A stretch of DNA of 64,000 nucleotides from Gammaproteobacteria bacterium (GTDB lineage Bacteria; Pseudomonadota; Gammaproteobacteria; Pseudomonadales; Azotimanducaceae), in the NCBI GenBank assembly GCA_021773565.1, contig JAJFJZ010000013.1, positions 310,001 to 374,000 of the forward strand, given 5' to 3'. Below the pieces are notes generated by a model that saw only the letters and a program-made list of their open reading frames with translations, was not told the origin of the DNA and did not search any database. The position numbers and the translations under genes are program-made. This document shows positions 366 to 25,673 of this stretch, in pieces. Within the stretch, counting starts at the first letter, position 1. Each line of letters opens with the position of its first letter.

Positions 366-2042
366 TTAGCTATTGCCTTCCAGCATTGGTAAATCCAGGC
401 CCTGTTCTTGTGCACATTGAATAGCCAGTTCATAACCAGCGTCAGCGTGGCGCATTACACCAGTAGCGGGGTCGTTCCATAACACCCGTTCGATTCGTTG
501 TTTTGCATCCTCACTACCATCACACACTATTACCAAACCAGCATGCTGGCTAAAACCCATGCCAACACCACCACCATGGTGCAGGCTAACCCAGGTGGCA
601 CCGCTGGCGGTACTTAGCAGGGCATTGAGCAGGGGCCAATCTGATACCGCATCCGATCCATCCATCATGGCTTCAGTTTCCCTGTTTGGAGAAGCAACCG
701 ATCCGGAATCCAGGTGGTCACGTCCAATTACTACAGGTGCAGAAAGTTCTCCATCTGCGACCATTTTGTTAAACGCAACACTCACTCGTGCGCGATCCTT
801 AAGACCTATCCAGCAGATGCGGGCCGGTAAGCCCTGAAACTGTATTTTTTTACCGGCCATATCCAGCCAGTTATGCAATTGTGCATTGTCCGGGATCAGC
901 TCCTTTAGTTTTGCATCAGTCTTGTAGATGTCCTGCGGATCGCCAGACAGGGCAACCCAGCGAAAAGGACCAATGCCTTCACAGAATAATGGCCGCACGT
1001 AGGCCGGAACAAACCCGGGGAAATTAAAAGCATTTTCAACGCCAGTCTCGAAGGCCATCTGGCGAATGTTATTACCGTAGTCCAGTACAGACACACCTTT
1101 CTGCTGGAATTGCAGCATAGCCTTTACCTGTTTTGCCATACTGGCCTTTGCTGCCTCGACTACCATTGTAGGTGCAGATTTTCTCTGTTCAATCACCATT
1201 TCTAGGCTCCACCCTTCAGGCACGTAGCCATTTAGAGGGTCATGTGCGCTGGTTTGGTCTGTAACTACATCAGGCCTGACTGACCGTTCCTGCAGTAGAT
1301 CAAATACTTCGGCTGCATTGCCTAACAAACCAACGCTTAGTGGCGTACGAGTGCTGCAACTCTCCTGGATTAAATGTAAGGCGTGGTCCAGATTTTCTGC
1401 TTTACAATCGAGATAGCCACTTTCCAGACGCATATCAATGCGCGACTCATCCACTTCAATTGCCAGCATGGAATATCCTGCCATAGTGGCCGCCAGCGGT
1501 TGAGCGCCACCCATGCCACCCAGACCAGCTGTTAGAATCCAGCGTCCAGCAGCGTCTCCTTCGAAGTGTTTATTTGCAACAGCGCAGAATGTTTCGTAAG
1601 TGCCCTGTACGATCCCCTGGGAACCGATATAGATCCACGATCCAGCCGTCATCTGGCCGTACATCATTAATCCAGCCTTATCGAGTTCATTGAAGTGTTC
1701 CCATGTACTCCATCTGGGAACCAGATTGGAATTGGCGATTAGTACGCGAGGTGCATTAGCATGGGTTTTGAACACCCCTACCGGTTTTCCACTTTGCACA
1801 AGCAGGGTTTCATCACTTTCCAGCCGCTCCAGACATTCTACAATTTTGTCGTAACAGGCCCAATTCCTTGCCGCCCTGCCTATGCCCCCATATACGATGA
1901 GTGATTCAGGATGCTCTGCAACATCAGCATCCAGATTATTCATCAGCATCCGTAACGGCGCTTCAGTCAGCCAGCTTTTGGCTGTAAGCGTATTTCCCGT
2001 GGCAGCCTTTATTTTCCGGCTGCTATCTATTCTGTTATTCAC
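366..2042 (-). CDS. hutU: Urocanate hydratase (urocanase)
   Basis: Converts urocanate to 4-imidazolone-5-propionate with tightly bound NAD+, in the cytoplasm. At 558 residues it is full length. The glycine-rich stretch [19 protein letters not shown] (about residues 171-189) is the family nucleotide-binding signature. The C-terminal half has [13 protein letters not shown], which carries the conserved cysteine region, and [19 protein letters not shown]. The start is a GTG at 2040-2042 that overlaps the hutC stop by 8 bp (GTGAATAA) and is preceded by AGGAGT, so translation is probably coupled to hutC. Confidence 0.97.
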
Positions 2043-2781
2043 TCATACTCCTCGTGTTCTGGAAATTAAGGTGGCCACCGATGCGATATCGATCTCCCGG
2101 ATGATAGAGGTAGGCAATACTAACGACGCCTTTTATGCTCCATGTTCGACGCGTTATCTTCAAACAAGGGTCCTTACGGGACATTTGCAAAGCTTTGCTG
2201 ATCGGCCCGTTTGGCAATTGCGCTTCAACCACATGATCCGCTTCTGTAAGGGGTGCTACTTCGGACAAATATGCATTGGGCGTTATGCTTGTGAAATCCT
2301 GGATAATATATTCCGGGGCAAACCCGGGATTTACATAACGATCTTCGTACTGCACAGCCCTGTCATCTTCAAGATGCACAATCGTGCTGTGAAACGCTGC
2401 CTGACCTTCCTGCATAGCCAGCATCATGGCTGTGTAACTGCTATTTTTGATCCGATCCAGTGTTAATATCCGGCAGGCATACGAATGTCCCCTGCCCCTC
2501 ACTTCATCGGCGATATTTTGAATCTCAAGCAAGGCGCTCATGGGTCGCGTATCACTTACGAACGTGCCCAGACCCTGGCTTCGAACCAGAACGCCCTCCG
2601 AACAAAGGGCATCTATTGCCTTTCTGGCAGTCATTCGACTAACGGAAAAGTTTTCTGCCAGCACATTCTCCGAATACACCTTGTCTGCAGGTACCCATAC
2701 TCCGGAATTAATCCGGCCCAGAATGAAATTTTTTATCTGTATGTATTTTGGTTCCACATCATGCTCATATTGGTCAAACAA
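2035..2781 (-). CDS. hutC: Histidine utilization repressor, GntR family
   Basis: GntR/HutC-type repressor that senses urocanate and controls the hut genes. The N-terminal winged helix is clear ([19 protein letters not shown], then [20 protein letters not shown], and the wing [12 protein letters not shown]). The remainder is a UTRA effector domain. Its 248 residues match the family. The longest start is a TTG at 2779-2781; a GTG at residue 9 (2757) is an alternative because no ATG is available nearby. It is the first gene of the leftward operon and is transcribed away from hutI across the operator at 2800-2833. Confidence 0.95.
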
Positions 2782-2799
2782 GGTGCCTGGAGCAGTTTA

Positions 2800-2833
2800 C
2801 TTATGTATACTTGTATATACAAGCAAACATAAG
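2800..2833. promoter_or_regulatory. HutC operator in the divergent hutC/hutI promoter region
   Basis: A perfect 14-bp palindrome CTTGTATATACAAG (2810-2823) sits inside an outer palindrome, CTTATGT (2800-2806) paired with ACATAAG (2827-2833), all centred on 2816.5. The core matches the TGTATATACA-type site known for HutC proteins. It lies 19 bp before the hutC start and about 70 bp before the hutI start, so one site could repress both arms. Confidence 0.85.
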
Positions 2834-2900
2834 AAAAGCTAAACGTGCAATATTGGTTTTTTTGGTATTCTGCACAGCCACATCAGGAGCCGCAGGTGGT

Positions 2901-4130
2901 ATGACCGTCGACACACTCATACGTAATGTACACATCGCACCAATGACTGCTGAAGTCACCAATGGGCAGGAGTACGGGAACACAGGGGCAATCGCACTCA
3001 AAAACGGTTTGATTCACTGGATGGGTTCGGAGCATGAAGCAAACAACATTGAATCATCAGAGACGATTGATGGCGGCGGGTACTGGCTAACCCCGGGGCT
3101 GATAGATTGCCATACCCACCTGGTATACGGCGGCCAGAGATCCCGGGAATTCGAACTGAAGCTGCAGGGTGCCAGCTACGAACAAATTTCCCGGGAAGGC
3201 GGCGGTATTGTCAGTACGGTTTCAGAAACGCGGAAACTTTCCGAAGCTCAGTTGTTTGAAGTCTCGTCACAACGTTTACGCTGCCTGTTAAACGAGGGCG
3301 TTACTACTGTCGAAATAAAATCCGGTTACGGGCTGGATATCCAAAACGAAGTGAAAATGCTGCGTGTTGCACGCATGTTGGGGGAAAACCATCCGGTTAG
3401 TGTTAGAACCACTTTTCTCGGAGCCCACGCTCTACCAGCTGAGTTCTCGAATAAGGATGCGTATATCCGGTTTCTGATAAAGGAAGTTTTACCTGAGGTT
3501 CACAGATTAAAACTTGCGGATGCGGTCGATTTTTTTTGCGAAGGCATAGCCTTCAGTCGCGCGCAATGCGAATCTATTTGCCAGGCAGCGAAAAGTTTGG
3601 GCCTACCCGTCAAGGGGCATGTTGAGCAATTATCCAATCTACGAGGGGCCAGCCTGGTAGCAGAATATGCGGGACTATCGGTCGATCATCTGGAGTATCT
3701 GCATGAGGATGATATACCCCTGATTAAAAAAGCCGGTGTTACGGCAGTGTTGCTTCCGGGTGCATTTTATTTCCTGGGTGAAACGCACCTGCCACCTGTA
3801 GAAAGTTTGCGTAAACATCAGGTGCCTATTGCCATCGCAAGCGACCTGAATCCGGGATCTTCTCCCATCGCTTCACTGCTTAATGTGATGAACCTGGCCT
3901 GCGTGCAATTCAAGCTCAGCCCTTTGGAAGCGCTACTTGGCGTCACACGCCATGCTGCCGGAGCATTGGGTTTGCAAGACAGCATCGGCCAGATTAAACA
4001 GGGATATGATGCTGATCTTGTACTATGGCCCATAGAATCCCCCGCCCAGCTGAGTTACGGAATGAATCTTGTGAAGCCGGAACGAATATTTAAGGCAGGC
4101 AAACAGGTTCAGGCTGCACAAGCCTGTTGA
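2901..4130 (+). CDS. hutI: Imidazolonepropionase
   Basis: Hydrolyses 4-imidazolone-5-propionate to N-formimino-L-glutamate, the third step of histidine degradation. It is an amidohydrolase-fold protein with the metal motif DCHTHLVYGG, followed by REFELKLQGASYEQISREGGG, EIKSGYGLD, FLGAHALP, KGHVEQLSN and SDLNPGSSP, all typical of HutI. The reading frame is open further upstream, but the ATG at 2901 (MTVDTLIRNVHIAPM) gives the usual length of 409 residues and has AGGTGG just upstream. An upstream start would run into the operator and antisense hutC. It is the first gene of hutI-hutF-hutG. Confidence 0.95.
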   Translation: MTVDTLIRNVHIAPMTAEVTNGQEYGNTGAIALKNGLIHWMGSEHEANNIESSETIDGGGYWLTPGLIDCHTHLVYGGQRSREFELKLQGASYEQISREGGGIVSTVSETRKLSEAQLFEVSSQRLRCLLNEGVTTVEIKSGYGLDIQNEVKMLRVARMLGENHPVSVRTTFLGAHALPAEFSNKDAYIRFLIKEVLPEVHRLKLADAVDFFCEGIAFSRAQCESICQAAKSLGLPVKGHVEQLSNLRGASLVAEYAGLSVDHLEYLHEDDIPLIKKAGVTAVLLPGAFYFLGETHLPPVESLRKHQVPIAIASDLNPGSSPIASLLNVMNLACVQFKLSPLEALLGVTRHAAGALGLQDSIGQIKQGYDADLVLWPIESPAQLSYGMNLVKPERIFKAGKQVQAAQAC

Positions 4131-16688: not shown

Positions 16689-18569
16689 CTACTCTGCTGT
16701 ACTACTCAGATTAGTCAGGAACCCACTCGGTGTGTTCATCAGACCTTGAACCTTTAGATCAAGCGCTGATGAGATTTTGAGTCGCCACTTACCTGCACCG
16801 TTTCCAAGTGCTCCGGTTAAGCCTATTCCCGCATTTCCGTTCTCAAGATCAGCAGAACTAATCTCCTTGCCGCCCTTGCCTGCAATGGTAAATGTCACAC
16901 TACCACCAGGGGCAGGATTACCATTATCATCGATCCCTGTAATGGTCACAGTACCGGGGGCATTGCTGTCATTGATAATACGCAGGGAACTCACCTGATT
17001 GGGGTTGGTACCGGGATTGAAGAACCATACATCGTTAACATTTCCGGTAATGGGCGTTACCCGACTTAAGTTGGTCAAAAAACCATCCGGCGTTCTCACC
17101 AGGCTCATTACCTGAATACCGCCAGAATGACTGACGGTTAAGCGCCAGCGACCTTCGCCGTCACCCAACATACCGGCAAGGCCTTTGCCTGGATTACCGT
17201 TTTCCAGATCGCCTGCGTTCATCTGCTTGGATTCATTCGGAACCAGGTCAAACAGAATATTACCACCTGGCGCAGGATTACCTGCATCATCGATCCCGGC
17301 AATCGCTACGGTGCGCATCTGATTAGTCGTATTGATAATGCGCAGGAAGGTTTGTCGTGCTGGCTCACTGGCAGGATTACCGAAGTAGATCACGTGATCC
17401 CCTGCGCCATTGATGGCCACCATGCCGCTTAGGTTGGTTAAGAAGCCGTCCGGCGTTCGGATCAGGCTCATCACTTGCATATCCAGGGTAGACGCTACCG
17501 TTAAGAACCACTTACCGGTGCCATTACCCAGACTTCCTGTGAGTCCTTTCGCTACGTTACCCCCTTCTATTTCCTGAGCGTTTATTTGCTTGGACTGGTT
17601 TGGACCCAGCGTAAAGGTCATGGTGCCTGGGGATGACACACCGGCATCATCTACTCCGGTAATGGTAACCGTACCGGTGTTAGCAGTAAGATTCACAAAA
17701 CGCATGAATGTTTGTTGGGTGATGTTGCTGGCAGGATTAGCAAAATATACCTGGTTGTTAATGCCAGACCTGGGTACAACATCGTTCACGCTGGTAAGGA
17801 AACCGTCAGGTGTGCGAATCAAACTCATAACTTTTAGAGCCGTGTCAGAGCGTACCCTAAACTGCCATTTACCCTGGCCATTACACAGATTACCTGTAAA
17901 GCCTTTACCCGCATTGCCGTTTTCTACGTCCTGAGCATTAAATTGTTTGGACTCCTGTGAAGCCAAAATGAAGCTGATTATTTTCTTGCTGGGCGCTCCA
18001 CCATCATCGATGCCGTAGACCTCGATGGCGGCCGGTGTTGCGTTGGGGTTTACGAAACGCAGAAAGGTTTGCTGGGTTACATTGCTGCCGGGGTTGGCGA
18101 AATAGAGTCTTTGCTCCAATGCTAAAGCAGAGCTGGCAGCCAGAGGTGCTACTGCCACGTTACTAAAACAGGCATCCACACTGGCAGGATTCTGGGGATC
18201 AGTGCCGGTCTGGAACTCTTGCAGGTTGGTTGCACCATCCATATCCGGGTCTGCCGAGGCATCAGCGGCCAGGAGTGAGTTCAGGCCATTGGATATCTCG
18301 AAAAAGTCTGGCATGCCATCGTTATCGTCATCCGGATCATCAATATCCAGGATGCCGTCCCCGTCGGTGTCTACTTCATCCGGTTTGGCATCACTACGTT
18401 GAACAATATTGCCGCGATTATCATAGGTATAAAAAATCCGCGAACCATCATCGTAGGTTACCTGTATCAAACGACCAACTTCGTCGTAGACGTAGGTTTC
18501 GGCATGGGCAACAGAAAGCAATAACAGCGCGGTTATCGCCAAACTAGTAGTTCTTATCAGGCTAAACAT
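16689..18569 (-). CDS. Secreted protein: YD repeat, thrombospondin type 3-like segment and four 119-residue repeats
   Basis: A 626-residue secreted protein. Residues 1-23 are a signal peptide ending AHA. Residues 24-60 form one RHS/YD unit (YVYDEVGRLIQVTYDDGSR). Residues 66-125 are Asp-rich and calcium-binding in style (DTDGDGILDIDDPDDDNDG). Four copies of an unnamed repeat start near residues 155, 274, 393 and 513. Each opens like LYFANPGSNVTQQTFLRFVN, continues with GIDDAGNPAPGG and ESKQMNAGDLENGN, and closes with VMSLIRTPDGFLTNLS. The ATG lies within the last codons of the RHS gene (13-bp overlap, GGGAG upstream), so the two are translated from one message. Function unknown; a surface or matrix role alongside the RHS protein is inferred. 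Confidence 0.85.
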   Translation of the reverse strand: MFSLIRTTSLAITALLLLSVAHAETYVYDEVGRLIQVTYDDGSRIFYTYDNRGNIVQRSDAKPDEVDTDGDGILDIDDPDDDNDGMPDFFEISNGLNSLLAADASADPDMDGATNLQEFQTGTDPQNPASVDACFSNVAVAPLAASSALALEQRLYFANPGSNVTQQTFLRFVNPNATPAAIEVYGIDDGGAPSKKIISFILASQESKQFNAQDVENGNAGKGFTGNLCNGQGKWQFRVRSDTALKVMSLIRTPDGFLTSVNDVVPRSGINNQVYFANPASNITQQTFMRFVNLTANTGTVTITGVDDAGVSSPGTMTFTLGPNQSKQINAQEIEGGNVAKGLTGSLGNGTGKWFLTVASTLDMQVMSLIRTPDGFLTNLSGMVAINGAGDHVIYFGNPASEPARQTFLRIINTTNQMRTVAIAGIDDAGNPAPGGNILFDLVPNESKQMNAGDLENGNPGKGLAGMLGDGEGRWRLTVSHSGGIQVMSLVRTPDGFLTNLSRVTPITGNVNDVWFFNPGTNPNQVSSLRIINDSNAPGTVTITGIDDNGNPAPGGSVTFTIAGKGGKEISSADLENGNAGIGLTGALGNGAGKWRLKISSALDLKVQGLMNTPSGFLTNLSSTAE

Positions 18570-21500
18570 ACTACTCCCTGCACATCATTTTTAACGGGTC
18601 GTTGTTTAGTCGGATCGATTCCCTGCGCCCTGTCCAATGCATCAGATGCTTTAAGGTACGCGTCTCTTAATTCACTCACAGTACCCTCTCCAAATTCGAG
18701 CAAGTCCAGACCCGTCAGAAATGGAGTGTCTTCTTTCAGTTCTTTTTCCGCCCTTTTTAGTTTTTTTAGTGCCTTGGCTACCGCTTCCTTTAGCCGATTC
18801 AACTCACACTCGCTGATTTTCGGAACTGGTGCATACCAGGTTTGACCGAAACCACCTGGATATCCGCCAAAGGAATCGTTTCCCAGACGCCCAATATCTC
18901 CAAAGGGGATTCCTGCGAGACTCCCACCCTCACCGGTTTTGCCCTGGTTCAAAAAATTGCCAACGTATTTCAGGAAGGGGTCCGCATCAAACCCCTCAAT
19001 GGTAGAGTCGGCGTAATCAAAGGGATTTAAGGTGCTAAAAGGCTCATGAATCGGTCGCCTCCCATCACGAGGATGAACCCGAGGACGAAAACGCGCACCA
19101 AAAACTACTCCGCCATCGGTTTCTGTCGTCAAATCAAATTGCAGGCGCAGCCGCGAGGTGATGTTAGTTGTTGGTAGGGGACCAGGCGATTGAAAATCAA
19201 GCCCAAATCGCCCATAACCACTCAATCTGACTTCTTCACCGCTTATGTCCACATACTTCATTGGATTGGCAAAAGCATATTGATAAGGACTCACGTCGCG
19301 CGGCCCAACACCATCCAGCGGATCACGGGATAAAAAGCGCCCGTTCGTGCTGTCATAATAGCGGGCCCTCATATAGAACAAACCATTGCCTTCATCCATA
19401 ACACCTAACTGTCCCTGCCAGGTAAAGGGGTTGTCCAATGCACCGCTACTGGCTGTAATTTGCCCATAAGGAGTGAAGGCATAGGTAGCAACGACTGCAC
19501 TGGCATCGTTAGTTACAAAGCGCGTATTGCCCAATTCGTCAAAATGATAATACTGGCGTGCATTGGATGTGGCATTTACCCGATAAAGGAGCGCACCACT
19601 TGGGGTGTGAACATAATAGTTCAGATCCGCGCCCGCCTGTTTTTCTGTGGAAACAGAGGCAAGACCATATAAGTAATTCCACACGTAAATTCGTGTGTCT
19701 GCCCCAGTGGATCGAGAGAGGCGTAATCCAGCGGCATTATACGTTGCCGAAACTGAACCACCCCCGCGGGTATACATGGTAAGCCTTGACGCAAGGTTCC
19801 ATGTATAGGAATTGCCCGCTGATGCAGTTAATCTGCCCATGGCGTCATACCCGGCACCGCCTGTTTGAGCGGCGCCATCATAGACACTTATCGCATTACT
19901 CACTCCGGTTGCTGAGGCAATCAGCGGCATGTCCCGGTCTGCACCGGTAATCCGCCCGCCAGCGTCCCGCAGCAGGCTGATGGTAGATATGTCCCCTTCC
20001 GACATTCCAACCAGGCGACTGTCGTCATCTAGGGAGATTGTTTGCATAATTCCATTGGGCCGCGTCATAGAGGTAAAACGCCCCGCAGGATCGTAACTGA
20101 AATTGCTTAGGCCACCAATCCAGTCGGTAACACTAACCAGTCGATCGCTCGCGTCGTAAGCATAAGTCACTGTCTTCCCCGGGGCCAGGGTGACGCTGGT
20201 CAAACGCCCTCCGGCATCATAGGTTGCTGTAATCCCATTACTGTCAGTTAAGCGATCGTTCGCATCAAAGGTATTCGATATATTGACCGTGGCGCCCTGG
20301 CTGGCCGAGGCAAGACGACCAGTGGCAGTATAACTAAAATTGAGCACTGTGGCGTCGGAGTAACTGCGTTTCGTCAACCGGTTTCCAGCATCAAACGTCA
20401 GGTTTAAAGTACCAAGACCCGCGGGATAGGTGACTACTGAGGGGTGGTTTCGATTATCGTAAGAGATAAGATACTGGTTACCGTTTGGGTCGGTTCTGGA
20501 AATTTCACGCCCGCTCGAATCATAAGCATATTGCCAGGTATTGCCGTCCGGGTCAGTAACGCCGGTTAGCTGATTATTATCATTGTAGTTATAGCTGTTA
20601 CTGATCTTGCCACCGGGCAACACCAGTTCACTCAGTCGGTTTGCAGCGTCATAGGTAAAATTGGTTGTCGCTCCCAGCGCATCTGTCTGACTAATGATAC
20701 GATTACGATTATCGAATACGCGCGCGTTTTGAAAACCCAATGGGCTCGTGGTAGCGACTATTCGGCCCAGTGCATCTGAATCGAAACTCAGCGTATGGCC
20801 CTGAGGATTACTCACACTGGAAAGGATTGCTTCGGCATCGAAGGTAAAGCTCAGGCTTTCACCAGATGCATTCTGAATAGCGCCTAGTCGGTTAAGTTGG
20901 TCGTAGATGTAATTGGTAGTATTACCATTTGGGTCGGTACTGCTGCTGTGCCGATTCAGTGAGTCGAAAGTTCTACTGCTAATACCACCCAGAGGATCGG
21001 TTACCTGCACTACACGATCATTACCGTCATAGCCAAATACAGCCGTATCATTTAAGGGGTTGGTAATACTTGTCAAATTGCTATTCGAATCAAATGTATG
21101 CTTTGTAATGAGGCCGTTTTCATCACTAAGCTGTGTCGGATTGCCCCGACTATCATAGGTCAGATCAAAGGTACTACTATCTGCCTGAGTGATTCGTACA
21201 ACACGATCAAAGGCATCATACGCAATAGTTCGTGTGTTCAGTGCCGGGTCCCGAAGACTGATGGGACGTTGCCTGGCATCATAGCTAAATGTGCTTGTGC
21301 CACCCAAAGGATTGGTCGTTGTTAATAGACGACCCCGGGAATTATAGCTTGCGTTTGAGGTGTTACCAATAGCGTCGGTAATTGATGTGCGATTACCCTG
21401 CGCATCATATCCAAAGCCAATCACCGAACCATCCTGAAGCGTGCTCTGTGTTAGATCGAACTGGATTACATTGTCAAAGGCACGACTGGTGTAAGCGCGA

Positions 21501-23023
21501 CTCGTACTACTACCATCGGCATAGGTAATACTGTTCAGTCTTCCACTCGGCGCGTGAAAGCCAAAGCTGGTGACGCCAGCCTGCCTATCTATAAGACTAT
21601 CGACACGCCCATCCGAGTCGTATGTTGTGGTAAAACTCTGGCCGTTCTGGTCCTGAACCCCTGTCAACTCGGCCTCCGCGCTGTGTGTGTGCACCCTGAG
21701 ATTACCCTCGGGGTCTGAAAGGTTTGTATCGTTGGCACCATAGGCAAACGTGGAGGTATGACCATCAGCATTGGTCTGAGAGACCACCCTGTTCTGGCCA
21801 TCGAATGTCTGGCTGAACGGGATATTGCCTTCCGGACGTTGTGTCGATGCGAGTAATCCGGCAGCAGCATAACTATAGGTGGTCGTGTTTCCCGCCACAT
21901 CAGTGACACTGGTCAAATCGTTATCTGTGTATGCCAGATTCACGTTACGCATGCCATCTGATACTTTAATGATGCGATCCTGGGCATCATAGGTATAGGT
22001 GAGCGTTCTACCCAGGCCATCCGCTACGCTGATCATTCTGTCATTCTGGTCGTAAGTAAATACCAGTGAATTGCCATGGCCATCTTCAATGCGCAACAAA
22101 AGCGAACGAAAAAAGTCGCCAAACACATAACGCAAGTTGGATACCGGGTCCAACATGCTGTATTCGTTCGCGCTCGCGTCGTACACCAGCTGATAGAGCA
22201 CATCCGTTTGGTTCAGGAGATTGAGGTTTTCATCAAACTCAATAGCACGGCCTTGCGGGCTAACGATACGGGGCATGGGCGTGTTGGGGTCTGGAAATAC
22301 CCACGCCATTTCCCATTGATAGTTGTGTAACCAGTTTTCTCCCAAAACAGGCACTACATTGTCATCATCGCTGAGACGGGCAGCGTAATACCGGCTGAAG
22401 TGTACTGGCATAGGCCCACCCAAACGCAGATCCGGCAATTCCTTGTTAAATAGTTCACCGCTGAAAGTATTTACCGGATCTCCGTCTATACCTGCCTCCA
22501 GGATATTCGCGCCTGTGCCGCTCGTTGCAGGCACTTCTTCATCGAACGAGGCAAGCGCAATCGTAATCGTGTCGATTTCGGTAGCAGTGCCACAGCCAGC
22601 AGGATCATTAACCGCAACCCATGTCAATTTATAGGTAACAATAGTACCGGGTGGCGGGGGACTCGCAACAGTTAGCGAAAATTCCCAGAATTTTACGGCT
22701 TCCGGGGGTGCTATAGGGGTCGGTCCCATAATACCTTCGGGGCCACCGGTTTTTTCAAGGGTCAGAAAAGCCTTGCAAAATCCATCAAACGACTGAAAAT
22801 CATAATCGTAATAAAATGGGCCCGGAAAATCTGCAACGCGCGATATATATTTTGGTGTAACAAGCGCTGGTACGGGTACATAGAGCAACGGGGGTTCAAG
22901 AACTAACAATACATGAGCCCTGGCGGCATAAATCGGCATCAACAGGCACAGACACACTATTGTCTTTACAAACAATGACCTGGTTGCCTTTTTTTGTTCC
23001 GGATACGCCACAAACCGGGTCAT
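18557..23023 (-). CDS. Secreted RHS/YD-repeat protein with porin-like tip segment
   Basis: About 1488 residues from the ATG at 23021-23023 (GGAGATAATT upstream; a TTG 12 bp earlier is less likely). The order is signal peptide (to about residue 38), a unique 140-residue N-domain, a DUF6531-like opening (GDPVNTFSGELF, VHFSRYYAARLSDD), a long array of YD repeats (FTYDAANRLSELVLPGG style), and the RHS core (YYHFDELGNTRFVTND, ARYYDSTNGRFLSRDPLDG, YQYAFANPMKYVD). The 224-residue tip after DISGEE begins VRLSGYGRFGLDF and continues TSRLRLQFDLTTETDGGVVF, then turns to a Lys/Glu-rich helix (LKEAVAKALKKLKRAEKEL) near the end. No VgrG, PAAR or evident immunity gene is adjacent. Confidence 0.92.
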   Translation of the reverse strand: MTRFVAYPEQKKATRSLFVKTIVCLCLLMPIYAARAHVLLVLEPPLLYVPVPALVTPKYISRVADFPGPFYYDYDFQSFDGFCKAFLTLEKTGGPEGIMGPTPIAPPEAVKFWEFSLTVASPPPPGTIVTYKLTWVAVNDPAGCGTATEIDTITIALASFDEEVPATSGTGANILEAGIDGDPVNTFSGELFNKELPDLRLGGPMPVHFSRYYAARLSDDDNVVPVLGENWLHNYQWEMAWVFPDPNTPMPRIVSPQGRAIEFDENLNLLNQTDVLYQLVYDASANEYSMLDPVSNLRYVFGDFFRSLLLRIEDGHGNSLVFTYDQNDRMISVADGLGRTLTYTYDAQDRIIKVSDGMRNVNLAYTDNDLTSVTDVAGNTTTYSYAAAGLLASTQRPEGNIPFSQTFDGQNRVVSQTNADGHTSTFAYGANDTNLSDPEGNLRVHTHSAEAELTGVQDQNGQSFTTTYDSDGRVDSLIDRQAGVTSFGFHAPSGRLNSITYADGSSTSRAYTSRAFDNVIQFDLTQSTLQDGSVIGFGYDAQGNRTSITDAIGNTSNASYNSRGRLLTTTNPLGGTSTFSYDARQRPISLRDPALNTRTIAYDAFDRVVRITQADSSTFDLTYDSRGNPTQLSDENGLITKHTFDSNSNLTSITNPLNDTAVFGYDGNDRVVQVTDPLGGISSRTFDSLNRHSSSTDPNGNTTNYIYDQLNRLGAIQNASGESLSFTFDAEAILSSVSNPQGHTLSFDSDALGRIVATTSPLGFQNARVFDNRNRIISQTDALGATTNFTYDAANRLSELVLPGGKISNSYNYNDNNQLTGVTDPDGNTWQYAYDSSGREISRTDPNGNQYLISYDNRNHPSVVTYPAGLGTLNLTFDAGNRLTKRSYSDATVLNFSYTATGRLASASQGATVNISNTFDANDRLTDSNGITATYDAGGRLTSVTLAPGKTVTYAYDASDRLVSVTDWIGGLSNFSYDPAGRFTSMTRPNGIMQTISLDDDSRLVGMSEGDISTISLLRDAGGRITGADRDMPLIASATGVSNAISVYDGAAQTGGAGYDAMGRLTASAGNSYTWNLASRLTMYTRGGGSVSATYNAAGLRLSRSTGADTRIYVWNYLYGLASVSTEKQAGADLNYYVHTPSGALLYRVNATSNARQYYHFDELGNTRFVTNDASAVVATYAFTPYGQITASSGALDNPFTWQGQLGVMDEGNGLFYMRARYYDSTNGRFLSRDPLDGVGPRDVSPYQYAFANPMKYVDISGEEVRLSGYGRFGLDFQSPGPLPTTNITSRLRLQFDLTTETDGGVVFGARFRPRVHPRDGRRPIHEPFSTLNPFDYADSTIEGFDADPFLKYVGNFLNQGKTGEGGSLAGIPFGDIGRLGNDSFGGYPGGFGQTWYAPVPKISECELNRLKEAVAKALKKLKRAEKELKEDTPFLTGLDLLEFGEGTVSELRDAYLKASDALDRAQGIDPTKQRPVKNDVQGVVCLA

Positions 23024-23097
23024 AATTATCTCCAATTGCAGTAAACTTCTGAAATTACTTCCTCAACAGCATAAGGTACGGCGCTTGACTATCGTAC

Positions 23098-23117: not shown

Positions 23118-23798
23118 TTAATCAGAAGAAACATAGCCCAGACGGGCTGCTGCAAGCGTTGCCTCCGCACGGCTGGAAACATTCAGCTTGCGGTAAACTG
23201 TTTTGGCGTACCCGGCGGCCGTGTAAAATGAAATTTCCAGCATTGCAGCAACGTCCTTAACGGTATAACCCTTGGCAAGCAGGGTGAGCACATCACGTTC
23301 TCGGGTGGTCAGGTTCTGGTCTTCCGGCTCTTTGGGTATGTGTTTTACATCATTTGCAAAATGCTGTAATACACGGCGGGCGATACTGGGAGACAGTGGT
23401 GGTTGTCCCGCCAGAATTCCTTTCAGCATCTCCACAAGCTCAGCTTTGGGTGCCTCCTTGAGAATATAGCCTGTTGCACCCTGCTTTAAGGCAGTGAATA
23501 AATGTTCATCGTCTGTAAACGCTGTCGCCATTACTACCTCACAACCACATTCAACCAGCGGTGCAACCAGATCGATTCCGGAGCCATCGGGCAGGCCAAT
23601 ATCAAGCAGGGCAAGGTCTGGCTTTGAGTCCAATAGCGTTTTGGCTTGTTGCAGGGAATCTGCTTCCAGAACCTTCACATGAATAAATGCATCAGCAATC
23701 GCATCGAGCATCCACTGCCGCGCGTTTACATGATCTTCTACAAGCAAACAAAGTCCGGGTTGATTCAAGATTTGGGCATTAAGTTGGTTTTCCTGCAT
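23118..23798 (-). CDS. LuxR-family (NarL-type) response regulator
   Basis: A 226-residue two-component regulator. The receiver domain has the acidic pocket (LVEDH), the phospho-accepting Asp in LALLDIGLPDGSGIDL, the Thr switch (MATAFTDD) and Lys in ILKEAP. The C-terminal GerE helix-turn-helix reads TTRERDVLTLLAKGYTVKDV and AGYAKTVYRKLNVSSRAEAT. It lies directly after the 7TM histidine kinase, its evident partner, and before the RHS gene, which it is well placed to control through the GC-rich palindromes on either side of it. Confidence 0.93.
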   Translation of the reverse strand: MQENQLNAQILNQPGLCLLVEDHVNARQWMLDAIADAFIHVKVLEADSLQQAKTLLDSKPDLALLDIGLPDGSGIDLVAPLVECGCEVVMATAFTDDEHLFTALKQGATGYILKEAPKAELVEMLKGILAGQPPLSPSIARRVLQHFANDVKHIPKEPEDQNLTTRERDVLTLLAKGYTVKDVAAMLEISFYTAAGYAKTVYRKLNVSSRAEATLAAARLGYVSSD

Positions 23799-23832
23799 TT
23801 TCCCATTTTAAGGTCTATCCGATATATGCGCT

Positions 23833-23849
23833 CCCCCTATTTAGGGGGC
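23833..23849 (-). promoter_or_regulatory. GCCCCCT-N5-GGGGG palindrome upstream of the response-regulator gene
   Basis: Read leftward, GCCCCCTAAATAGGGGG overlaps the kinase stop codon and ends 35 bp before the regulator ATG. It is the second copy of the pattern at 23098-23114 and has 6-7 bp of symmetry in each arm. A CATATAT box between it and the gene could be a -10 element. Confidence 0.6.
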
Positions 23850-25673
23850 CTGTAAGAAATTCTCCATTTGTTGCGTGAGGGGAACGGTTAACACAACGCA
23901 CACCCCGCCCGAATCATGATCACGCCACTCTACAGTGCCCTGAAGCTCATTGAGGCGTCGTTTTATTCCAGCCATACCAGATCCGGCCCCCTCCTTCTTG
24001 TCCTCAAGGCCCCTTCCGTCATCTACAAACTCCATTGTCAATCGGTCTGCCGCAACTATGGTGATCCAAATATTTTTTGCGTCTGCATGCTTAAGTGTAT
24101 TGGATATCAACTCACGTACTATATGCGTTAGATGATAGTTTTGACGACTGGTAAGTAAATGCTCAGAAGTTACAATGGGCCAATCCAGATTCAAACCATG
24201 TTTCTGTATACGTTGCATTGACTCGAGACGTGTTCTGGCTATCCAATCGGATAGAAGGGCTGTATTTTCCACAGGAATTGAGGCGATGGAGCGAATATCC
24301 TGAATAGCTTCGCGCGCTATCTCCGCTTGTTTTTCATCTGTGGCCAGATACACAAGATCCAGTAATTTTGCACCCACGTCATCGTGCAGATCTCTATAAA
24401 TGCGTGCACGCTCTTCACTGGCAGCACTTTCACGTTCCAGTTTCTCACGCAGGTTAAAACTCTCCTCAAGTTTGGCAGTTGCATCCCGCAGGCTGGTTTC
24501 CGTAAAGACAGTTGCCCTGCGCAATTGCCAGATCAGTTGTACCGCCACACTTAACAACACCAGTGGCGCGCCAAGATTTAGCGCAAAAAAGTGACTCAAC
24601 CACAGACTTTCCGAGACGCTGGTATTTAACAGGGCGTCATGCACACCCAGCCCAAATATCACTGCATAAGTTAGCGAAAACACCAGAGCGTCTTTGCGTT
24701 TTACCCGCCACGCAAGCCACAACGTTGTCCCAATGCAGTAGAGCCAACAGGCAAAGGCGCCGAGATGAACCAGCGTACTGGTTTGCGCAAATGCTTCCAT
24801 TGGCAGCAAGGCGTAAACAGTGCTTGCACACACCAGATAAACCAGACTTGCTATTTCAGTACGATATCTTGTTAATTTGAAATAGCGATGATTAAAAAAC
24901 ACAAACATTACAGAAAACACATCAATTCCTGTATGCAATAACCATTGCCAAACTTCGATTGATACGCTCAAGTCCTGGATTACAGGGTTTATGCTATAAA
25001 CGGTCCAGCTTGTTGCGGCTAAGGAAAAATACAGATAGCTCTTATTGTTTCTGTCAAACATCCACAAGCTGAAACCCAACAGTGCGATGATCAACGTAAT
25101 GCCAAGAATTATCCAGCTCAGCGTAATCTGGTTAAAATACCGTGCTTTGTACTCAACAAGCAGCAATTCGTAGTCTCCCAGAGCCGGAGGTAACAAATAG
25201 CCATAACCAGGAACTACTCTTAGTTCTACAACGATCTCATTGAGTTCATTTCTCAATAGAGATGAGTCCAACCGTGCCAGTAGGGGGCGATGCAGGTTTC
25301 GTGCTACCGGGTTAAGGCTGTCACCTCCGGCGACCAGCGTCCCATTGAGATATATCCGGGCATTCATGCTGTAACGCCACAAATAGAATGCGGACTGATC
25401 TCCCAATTGAGCTATTCCAGGAAGCTGATAACGTATTCGTGCACTATCGAAGCGCGCGTAAAGATCACGGTTCCAAAGAATCGGACCATTCACAGAGACC
25501 CATGTGTCAGCGTCGATCTGACCTTCAATACTTGAGAAAAACTGTACCTCGGACTGGGACAATAGCAGAGGCGCATGCCCTTCGTCGGAAGCCGCAGCAT
25601 GTGAAATGCCTGCGATAGCAATACTCAAAACAACCGCCAGAGCACAATGGAGTCGTGTATGCAGCTTATACAT
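23841..25673 (-). CDS. 7TM-type sensor histidine kinase (HisKA_3)
   Basis: A 610-residue membrane kinase. After a signal-like start, residues to about 180 form an extracytoplasmic beta-rich domain (a 7TMR-DISM-like or carbohydrate-binding-like fold is plausible: INGPILWNRDLYARFDSARI, MNARIYLNGTLVAGGD). A multi-helix membrane block follows (ITLSWIILGITLIIALLGFS onward), then a coiled coil. The HisKA_3 box is RDLHDDVGAKLLDLVY, and the ATPase has IVRELISNTLKHADA, DDGRGLED and GMAGIKRRLNELQG. The start overlaps the ATP-grasp stop by one base (TAATG). It is the partner of the LuxR-type regulator downstream. The ligand is unknown. Confidence 0.9.
   Translation of the reverse strand: MYKLHTRLHCALAVVLSIAIAGISHAAASDEGHAPLLLSQSEVQFFSSIEGQIDADTWVSVNGPILWNRDLYARFDSARIRYQLPGIAQLGDQSAFYLWRYSMNARIYLNGTLVAGGDSLNPVARNLHRPLLARLDSSLLRNELNEIVVELRVVPGYGYLLPPALGDYELLLVEYKARYFNQITLSWIILGITLIIALLGFSLWMFDRNNKSYLYFSLAATSWTVYSINPVIQDLSVSIEVWQWLLHTGIDVFSVMFVFFNHRYFKLTRYRTEIASLVYLVCASTVYALLPMEAFAQTSTLVHLGAFACWLYCIGTTLWLAWRVKRKDALVFSLTYAVIFGLGVHDALLNTSVSESLWLSHFFALNLGAPLVLLSVAVQLIWQLRRATVFTETSLRDATAKLEESFNLREKLERESAASEERARIYRDLHDDVGAKLLDLVYLATDEKQAEIAREAIQDIRSIASIPVENTALLSDWIARTRLESMQRIQKHGLNLDWPIVTSEHLLTSRQNYHLTHIVRELISNTLKHADAKNIWITIVAADRLTMEFVDDGRGLEDKKEGAGSGMAGIKRRLNELQGTVEWRDHDSGGVCVVLTVPLTQQMENFLQAP

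What the first reader, a model, noticed from the sequence alone, without database searches (positions are those of the whole stretch)
18557..23023. RHS protein whose variable tip starts with porin-like strands
RHS/YD-repeat proteins usually end in a toxin or other effector after the conserved core (here ending near SRDPLDGVGPRDVSPYQYAF). The 224-residue tip (nt 18560-19231) begins VRLSGYGRFGLDF and continues TSRLRLQFDLTTETDGGVVF, which closely resembles the first two or three beta strands of alphaproteobacterial-type porins (for example SGYGRFGL and TETDGG motifs, recalled from those families). The rest of the tip is Pro/Gly-rich, then a Lys/Glu-rich helix. A porin fragment fused to an RHS shell is not an arrangement I know. 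Sequence shows the motifs; fusion and function are inference.
Basis: partly seen in the sequence, partly recalled or inferred. Interest (0 to 1): 0.68.

Follow-up and report, generated by a model that had tools for sequence, protein, structure and literature searches.

The report
RHS shell with borrowed porin piece
A large, probably secreted shell protein in this bacterium carries, at the start of its exchangeable tip, the first sixty or so residues of an outer-membrane porin of a kind known from a different class of bacteria; the gene fusion looks real, was found in no other genome searched, and its purpose is not known.

Summary
Window 18557-23023 (-) encodes a 1488-aa RHS/YD-repeat protein. 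Its core ends near residue 1263. The next ~61 residues (19052-19234) are homologous to the mature N-terminus of Rhodobacteraceae-type porins: 1prn E 3.7e-7, profile of 31 porins E 4e-21, best identity 76%, 20 of 22 near-invariant porin columns kept. The other ~164 residues have no convincing relative. No other porin piece was found in the window, nor another Porin_4 match at E<=0.01 in the genome.

No second fusion turned up in 397 other genomes of the phylum or 74 of the family of the closest RHS relative (capped searches). In two other genomes with unrelated tips the RHS gene is likewise followed by a signal-peptide + YD + surface-domain gene.

Most likely: porin DNA from a Rhodobacteraceae-like donor was captured into the RHS tip. 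Its codons match no sampled porin; whether selection keeps it, or a low-GC donor explains this, is open. Three strands make no pore. The tip's role is unknown; leader or spacer is my best guess. Structure prediction failed (pLDDT ~34-35).

The parts
18557..23023 (-). RHS/YD-repeat protein, 1488 aa (a TTG at 23035 is also possible)
   Evidence: Pfam RHS_repeat E 2.2e-95, 17 stretches, DUF6531 E 5.2e-11; NCBIfam Rhs_assc_core E 1e-16 at residues 1183-1262. N-terminal Sec signal peptide read by eye, no tool.
19235..23023 (-). RHS N-terminal region and shell core, residues 1-1263, ending in the degenerate boundary motif PMKYVDISGE (D1234 and D1259 in the places of the autoprotease dyad, by motif comparison)
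   Evidence: 42% identity to the G1042 RHS protein over residues 165-1265; motif compared with RhsA and Rhs1
19052..19234 (-). porin-derived segment, residues 1264-1324 (EVRLSGYGRFGLDF...PRDGRRP), homologous to the mature porin N-terminus; its first two residues may instead belong to the RHS core
18560..19051 (-). rest of the tip, residues 1325-1488, Pro/Gly-rich then helical by appearance, no convincing homologue
   Evidence: AlphaFold pLDDT 33.9, uninformative
16689..18569 (-). downstream gene, 626 aa: signal peptide (by eye), YD/RHS repeat, TSP3-like acidic stretch (by eye), four similar repeats (by eye); overlaps the RHS stop by 13 nt
   Evidence: RHS_repeat E 8.2e-7 at residues 28-61; similar genes downstream of the RHS genes in L094 and L095

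Best explanation
A Sec-exported RHS shell protein has had its exchangeable C-terminal tip rebuilt: DNA for the mature N-terminus of a Rhodobacteraceae-type porin (about 61 codons: strand, loop, strand, turn, strand) was joined in frame to the end of the shell and is followed by ~164 residues of unknown origin. Origin (well supported as to descent of the segment, inferred as to the event): horizontal capture across bacterial classes by illegitimate recombination at the RHS tip boundary, perhaps at the two-residue [DE]-V likeness that porins share with the end of a related RHS core. Working (inferred): the protein goes through the Sec pathway, as does the downstream surface-type protein. The tip is cargo or an appendage of the shell. 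The porin strands form no pore; they serve as a beta-rich leader or spacer between the shell exit and the helical end.
For: Homology. Fusion at the core end: RHS similarity with G1042 runs to residue 1265 and the porin match starts at 1264. No second porin piece in the window's frames; no other Porin_4 match at E<=0.01 in the genome; tip absent from 96 relatives at E<=0.01. The matching porins come from one family, and the tip falls beside L018 in a FastTree tree of 31 porins, local support 0.827. The cassette's tips vary: G1042 and G819 RHS genes have tips with no BLAST match to this one (E<=1e-4) and no significant Pfam match. Tip displacement is an established feature of rhs genes (PMC2935791, section 10 read). 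Against an assembly chimera: 4-fold GC of the piece 18 of 39 against a mean of 0.517 in 28 window genes, p 0.52, and the frame is open across both ends. The downstream gene has a signal peptide and YD pair by eye and surface-type domains in the two other genomes by Pfam.
Against: No donor close at DNA level was found (best DNA identity 66%), so the capture event is inferred. GC3 of the 60-codon piece, 0.383, lies just under the range of 28 window genes, 0.415-0.554, though within that of 60-codon stretches of the RHS gene. The spacer/leader role has no direct evidence; both structure predictions failed. Retention of 20 of 22 near-invariant porin columns with third codon positions far from porins could mean that the sequence is kept for something more specific than a spacer.
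Confidence: 0.55

Rival explanations
1. Recent, functionless accident: a porin fragment from an unsampled low-GC Rhodobacteraceae relative was captured lately and persists only because RHS tips tolerate change.
For: No other genome searched has the fusion. A real low-GC porin, L037, agrees as little with the other porins at 4-fold sites (mean 0.304) as the tip does (0.331), so such codons need no long stay in the RHS gene. The piece still obeys porin constraints closely (20 of 22 columns), as a fresh capture would.
Against: No such donor was found in 394, 289 and 51 genomes (overlapping samples); L037 is only 55% identical to the tip. In the leave-one-out control 30 of 31 porins miss none or one of their near-invariant columns, the tip misses two, so it is slightly more worn than nearly all real porins. 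The long frame and the gene overlap are intact.
Confidence: 0.27
2. Porin mimic with a purpose: the released or displayed tip presents the porin N-terminus to the outer-membrane assembly machinery or to porins of Rhodobacteraceae neighbours and interferes with them, or serves as a decoy for a phage or bacteriocin.
For: If shell autocleavage follows the spacing of Rhs1 (D1338, shell ends at Leu1342) and RhsA (D1346, W1350), the freed tip would start at E1264, which aligns with residue 1 of mature porin 1prn. Conserved porin residues are kept while third bases at 4-fold sites agree with porins at only 0.33.
Against: The cleavage motif is degenerate (DISGE against DPxG W/L/F), so cleavage may not occur. 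G1042 has DISGS-DV at the same place, so the register can come from shared [DE]V residues. The piece lacks the C-terminal barrel end that outer-membrane assembly is known to read (recalled). No recognisable immunity gene. Low-GC donor not excluded.
Confidence: 0.08
3. The tip is an RHS toxin of unknown type whose activity lies in the C-terminal ~164 residues; the porin piece is incidental.
For: RHS tips commonly are toxins (PMC8636562, passages). The unmatched part has the size of a small toxin domain.
Against: No significant match in Pfam, NCBIfam, PHROGs or PDB sequences, nor in the defence library PADLOC (weak ones such as Indigoidine_A E 0.19 and a MutT chain E 0.25 were set aside). The next gene overlaps the stop and reads as a signal-peptide surface-type protein, not as a small immunity gene.
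Confidence: 0.2
4. Assembly chimera or contamination.
For: A cross-class fusion found in a single genome.
Against: Codons not unlike the host's, and different at p<0.01 from 13 of 31 porins, one frame across both ends, 458-kb contig, contamination estimate 0.48%; a contaminant would bring the rest of the porin, and none was found.
Confidence: 0.02

Closest known systems
RHS/YD-repeat polymorphic proteins with exchangeable C-terminal tips (Rhs, WapA, TcC, teneurins)
   Same: YD repeats, Rhs_assc_core, variable N- and C-terminal regions around a conserved core, boundary near the PxxxxD motif
   Different: Tip begins with a porin piece; boundary motif degenerate; no immunity gene recognised; no PAAR or other T6SS domain among the Pfam and NCBIfam matches, and a Sec signal by eye
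Rhodobacteraceae-type porins (1prn Rhodobacter blasticus porin; Sedimentitalea porins; Pfam Porin_4)
   Same: First ~60 residues of the mature protein, up to 76% identity, 20 of 22 near-invariant columns
   Different: No porin signal peptide in front, the later strands absent, no barrel; below the Pfam cut-off
rhs C-terminal displacement (Jackson et al. 2009, PMC2935791)
   Same: Different sequences joined at the core end; a YD-bearing gene downstream
   Different: There the dissociated tips carry their own piece of core and come from a pool of RHS tips; here a piece of an unrelated outer-membrane protein gene is used, and the downstream YD gene has its own signal peptide (by eye) and surface-type domains

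Membership tests
RHS/YD-repeat protein | Many YD/RHS repeats and the RHS-associated core domain | tested here: met
   RHS_repeat E 2.2e-95 with 17 stretches; TIGR03696 61.2 bits, cut-off 32.5
RHS/YD-repeat protein | Boundary motif PxxxxDPxG(W/L/F) with catalytic aspartates | tested here: inconclusive
   PMKYVDISGE: P, D and G kept, second P and W/L/F not; aspartates 25 apart against 22 in RhsA D1324/D1346
Polymorphic toxin system | Toxin domain in the tip | tested here: inconclusive
   No significant match to any family in Pfam, NCBIfam, PHROGs, PADLOC or PDB sequences for the non-porin part; an undescribed toxin is not excluded
Polymorphic toxin system | Immunity gene directly downstream | tested here: inconclusive
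   The next gene overlaps the stop by 13 nt and encodes a 626-aa protein with signal peptide (by eye) and YD repeat; activity not testable
Gram-negative porin (Porin_4) | Sequence match over the curated cut-off | tested here: not met
   19.8 bits against cut-off 27, profile positions 17-71 of 310
Gram-negative porin (Porin_4) | Full beta-barrel with C-terminal end strand | tested here: not met
   Only profile positions 19-84 of 323 matched; nothing significant elsewhere in the window
Gram-negative porin (Porin_4) | Common descent of the N-terminal segment | tested here: met
   E 3.7e-7, E 4e-21; beside L018 in a FastTree tree on 62 columns, local support 0.827 (the IQ-TREE run in that call gave no tree)

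The most novel reading that the evidence does not exclude
The RHS shell makes and releases a soluble mimic of the porin N-terminus. Shell autocleavage at E1263|E1264 would free a tip that begins like a mature Rhodobacteraceae porin, and this piece acts on outer-membrane protein assembly or porins of neighbouring alphaproteobacteria. It would be a first RHS tip built from a target's own outer-membrane protein.
Probability: 0.07. Interest if true: 0.88.

Novelty: new variant of a known kind. Interest (0 to 1): 0.5.

Why it matters
RHS tips are thought to be drawn from a pool of toxin-like modules. Here a tip starts with a piece of an outer-membrane protein of another bacterial class, which suggests that the tip site can capture unrelated genes. 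If the piece is kept by selection, RHS shells may carry mimics of surface proteins and not only enzymes. The junction also gives a precise prediction: where the shell should cut itself and what N-terminus would appear.

Tried and rejected
Whole-tip porin: rejected, the match stops at about residue 1324 and no frame of the window continues the porin. Frameshifted porin remnant: rejected by the same search. Porin from the bacterium's own genome: no other Porin_4 match at E<=0.01 and none over the cut-off; no tip match in 96 relatives. More fusions: none seen. Of the loci were tested (the own locus L061 left out); only L086, a porin of ordinary length, matched the porin part at E<=0.01. Rows that reached far into the porin half: G132 (L080) and G1102 (L074) run into unrelated tips, G933 ends at the core. 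The other rows without a locus reach at most query position 96 (porin half from 83) and were judged by range only. In genomes with many RHS candidates only about 10 were scored, so absence is not complete. Plasmids: the Paraburkholderia record reaching position 110 has only a chance-like 21-residue match to the porin part, E 0.03, and the Aureispira record none. Homologues of the last ~164 residues: weak hits at E 0.002-0.008 in 8 of 341 genomes (own genome counted in the 341); 6 lie in frames of 1130-1231 aa that I take for coiled coils without having identified them; the other two (L012, L017) were not followed up. Structure prediction: pLDDT 33.9 and 35.1, so no fold search was made. The codon argument for a long stay under selection was weakened by my control L037. 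In the neutral simulation protein identity fell to 0.15-0.16 by the time third-base identity at originally 4-fold codons reached 0.41-0.42 (the observed figure counts only codons with the same residue, so the two are not strictly alike); this speaks against long neutral drift after capture but not against a low-GC donor. IQ-TREE gave no tree. The organism was not identified.
Full report
What is there. On the minus strand, 18557-23023 encodes a 1488-residue protein with RHS repeats (E 2.2e-95, 17 stretches), DUF6531 and the RHS-associated core domain at residues 1183-1262. It starts with what reads by eye as a Sec signal peptide. The core ends in PMKYVDISGE, and the next residues are E1264-V1265-RLSGYGRFGLDF.

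The porin segment. Searched alone, the tip matches porin 1prn (Rhodobacter blasticus, organism name recalled) with E 3.7e-7; query residue 5 (E1264) aligns with residue 1 of the chain. Pfam Porin_4 matches at E 7.9e-4, under its curated cut-off. The genome-contig scan, which finds close relatives only, confirmed 2 loci of 98 candidate stretches, both Sedimentitalea porins. In a sample of 394 genomes of the family of one of these, 51 hold a match at E<=1e-8; of 289 genomes of its class, 2 do at E<=1e-5, one being the centre genome and the other (G446) bearing a handle from the family sample; of 51 relatives, 8 do at E<=1e-6 (samples overlap). A plasmid porin of Paracoccus methylovorus matches at 36%, E 3e-5, the only plasmid hit of the tip. 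Against 31 distinct porins (33 rows, two of them duplicates) the segment is 54 to 76% identical. It keeps 20 of 22 columns that are at least 95% invariant; in the leave-one-out control 23 of the 31 porins keep 22 of 22, three keep 21 of 22, four 22 of 23, and L047 19 of 24. In a FastTree tree on 62 columns it lies beside L018 with local support 0.827 and a long branch (0.44; IQ-TREE gave no tree). A profile of the 31 porins finds only this ORF in the six frames of the window (E 4e-21, profile positions 19-84 of 323; next hit E 4.1). By the porin fold (recalled) this is strand 1, loop 1, strand 2, turn 1, strand 3. The last ~164 residues of the tip are not porin.

Not from this genome. The only Porin_4 match in the 4.2-Mb genome at E<=0.01 is the tip itself. 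The tip is absent from the 96 other genomes at E<=0.01. Porins as such are common in the order (249 of 293 genomes with a Porin_4 match at E<=0.01; that set was not searched with the segment as a whole). The porin matched lies in G857, listed as same phylum but not same class as the window. Its locus is identical, 3192 of 3192 bases, to that of G446 of the class of the Sedimentitalea MAG. So the window's genome belongs to the same phylum (Pseudomonadota, by the lineage of Sedimentitalea) and another class, and the transfer crosses classes.

The cassette. The RHS core has no match at E<=1e-40 in the 36 other genomes of its genus and family that were searched; among all 57 relatives only G063 and G081 have one, at 30-32% identity. 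The best relative found is in G1042, 42% identical over residues 165-1265, with a tip that has no BLAST match to this one and no Pfam match. In G1042 and G819, as here, the next gene on the same strand encodes a signal peptide and YD pair (by eye in G819; Pfam RHS_repeat here and in G1042) and then surface-type domains: Ig-like in G1042, Ig, cadherin-like, PKD and TSP3 in G819, a TSP3-like stretch and four similar repeats here (by eye). The overlap with the RHS stop is 13 nt here; in G1042 the likely start lies just after the stop, in G819 about 160 nt beyond it. This looks more like a secreted or surface two-gene system than a type VI effector; that reading is inference. Directly upstream lie a LuxR-type response regulator and a 7TMR-DISM histidine kinase.

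Uniqueness of the fusion. A query spanning the junction was run on 398 genomes of the phylum, own included: 42 had a match at E<=1e-6; and on 74 genomes of the family of G1042: 5 had. Of 32 fetched loci only L086, the porin of G857, matches the porin half at E<=0.01. G933, fetched separately, has no porin half. Other rows without a locus were judged by query range, and in RHS-rich genomes only about 10 candidates were scored. Plasmids: 38 records match, none over 80% of the junction query, 30 listed; the two listed that reach furthest into the porin half were looked at, one has a chance-like 21-residue match at E 0.03, the other none. Phages: no match to the tip; viral contigs: 11 candidate stretches, none confirmed.

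How old is it? At 4-fold sites the segment has 18 of 39 G or C against a mean of 0.517 in 28 window genes (p 0.52), while 13 of 31 porins differ from it at p<0.01 and 18 do not; its GC3, 0.383, is just under the range of those genes, 0.415-0.554. Third bases at shared 4-fold codons agree with porins at 0.33 on average; 316 porin pairs of 60-80% identity agree at 0.60 (range 0.16-0.89). Simulated neutral decay from three porins reaches third-base identity of 0.41-0.42 only when protein identity is 0.15-0.16. So the divergence from sampled porins happened under protein-level constraint, either in the RHS gene or in an unsampled donor. The control porin L037 is just as scrambled (0.304 against 0.331), so the second cannot be excluded.

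A register worth testing. In Rhs1 the catalytic D1338 is followed by a shell end at Leu1342 (PMC8636562, passages); in RhsA, D1346 by an end at W1350 (PMC8765631, passages). With D1259 here, the same spacing gives a cut after E1263 and a tip that begins where mature porin begins. Two cautions: the motif is degenerate (DISGE), and the G1042 core has DISGS-DV at the same place, so a shared [DE]V may simply have set the crossover point.

Literature. Searches of the held library for RHS or YD repeat with porin (7, 0, 3 and 9 papers listed) showed no paper that by title or start of abstract describes such a fusion. In the polymorphic toxin survey PMC3482391 (first 300,000 characters held) the three places with 'porin' concern secretion and OmpA domains (passages). 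Tip exchange by C-terminal displacement is established (PMC2935791, section 10 and passages).

Verdict. A genuine RHS-porin fusion seen in one genome so far: new variant of a known kind. Shown: homology, fusion, porin type foreign to the searched relatives, variable tips in the cassette. Inferred: capture by illegitimate recombination, lack of pore function, role as part of the cargo. Unknown: activity of the tip.

Noticed in passing
16689-18569 (-); L094 6199-7065 (+); L095 about 759-3668 (-): In this window and two other genomes the gene directly downstream of the RHS gene has a signal peptide and YD pair, then different surface-type domains (TSP3-like plus four repeats; Ig-like with a C-terminal sorting-like tail by eye; Ig/cadherin/PKD/TSP3). 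It might cap the shell. I made no literature search for it as such.
   Followed up: partly
23118-25673 (-): LuxR-type response regulator and 7TMR-DISM histidine kinase directly upstream of the RHS gene on the same strand, possibly its regulators.
   Followed up: partly
window RHS residues 339-387: Pfam DUF4595 'with porin-like fold' matches the YD repeats at E 1.3e-4, below its cut-off; it lies far from the porin segment in the tip.
   Followed up: no
L097 5001-9007, L098 5001-7861: Two Methylomonas plasmids carry a large RHS gene, a small hypothetical gene, then a second RHS gene and, nearby, exosortase xrtM: another RHS arrangement with a downstream YD gene.
   Followed up: no
L107 1-3115: In an Aureispira plasmid the RHS (DUF6531) gene is followed 7 nt later by a T9SS sorting-domain gene, again an RHS gene with a secreted neighbour.
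   Followed up: no
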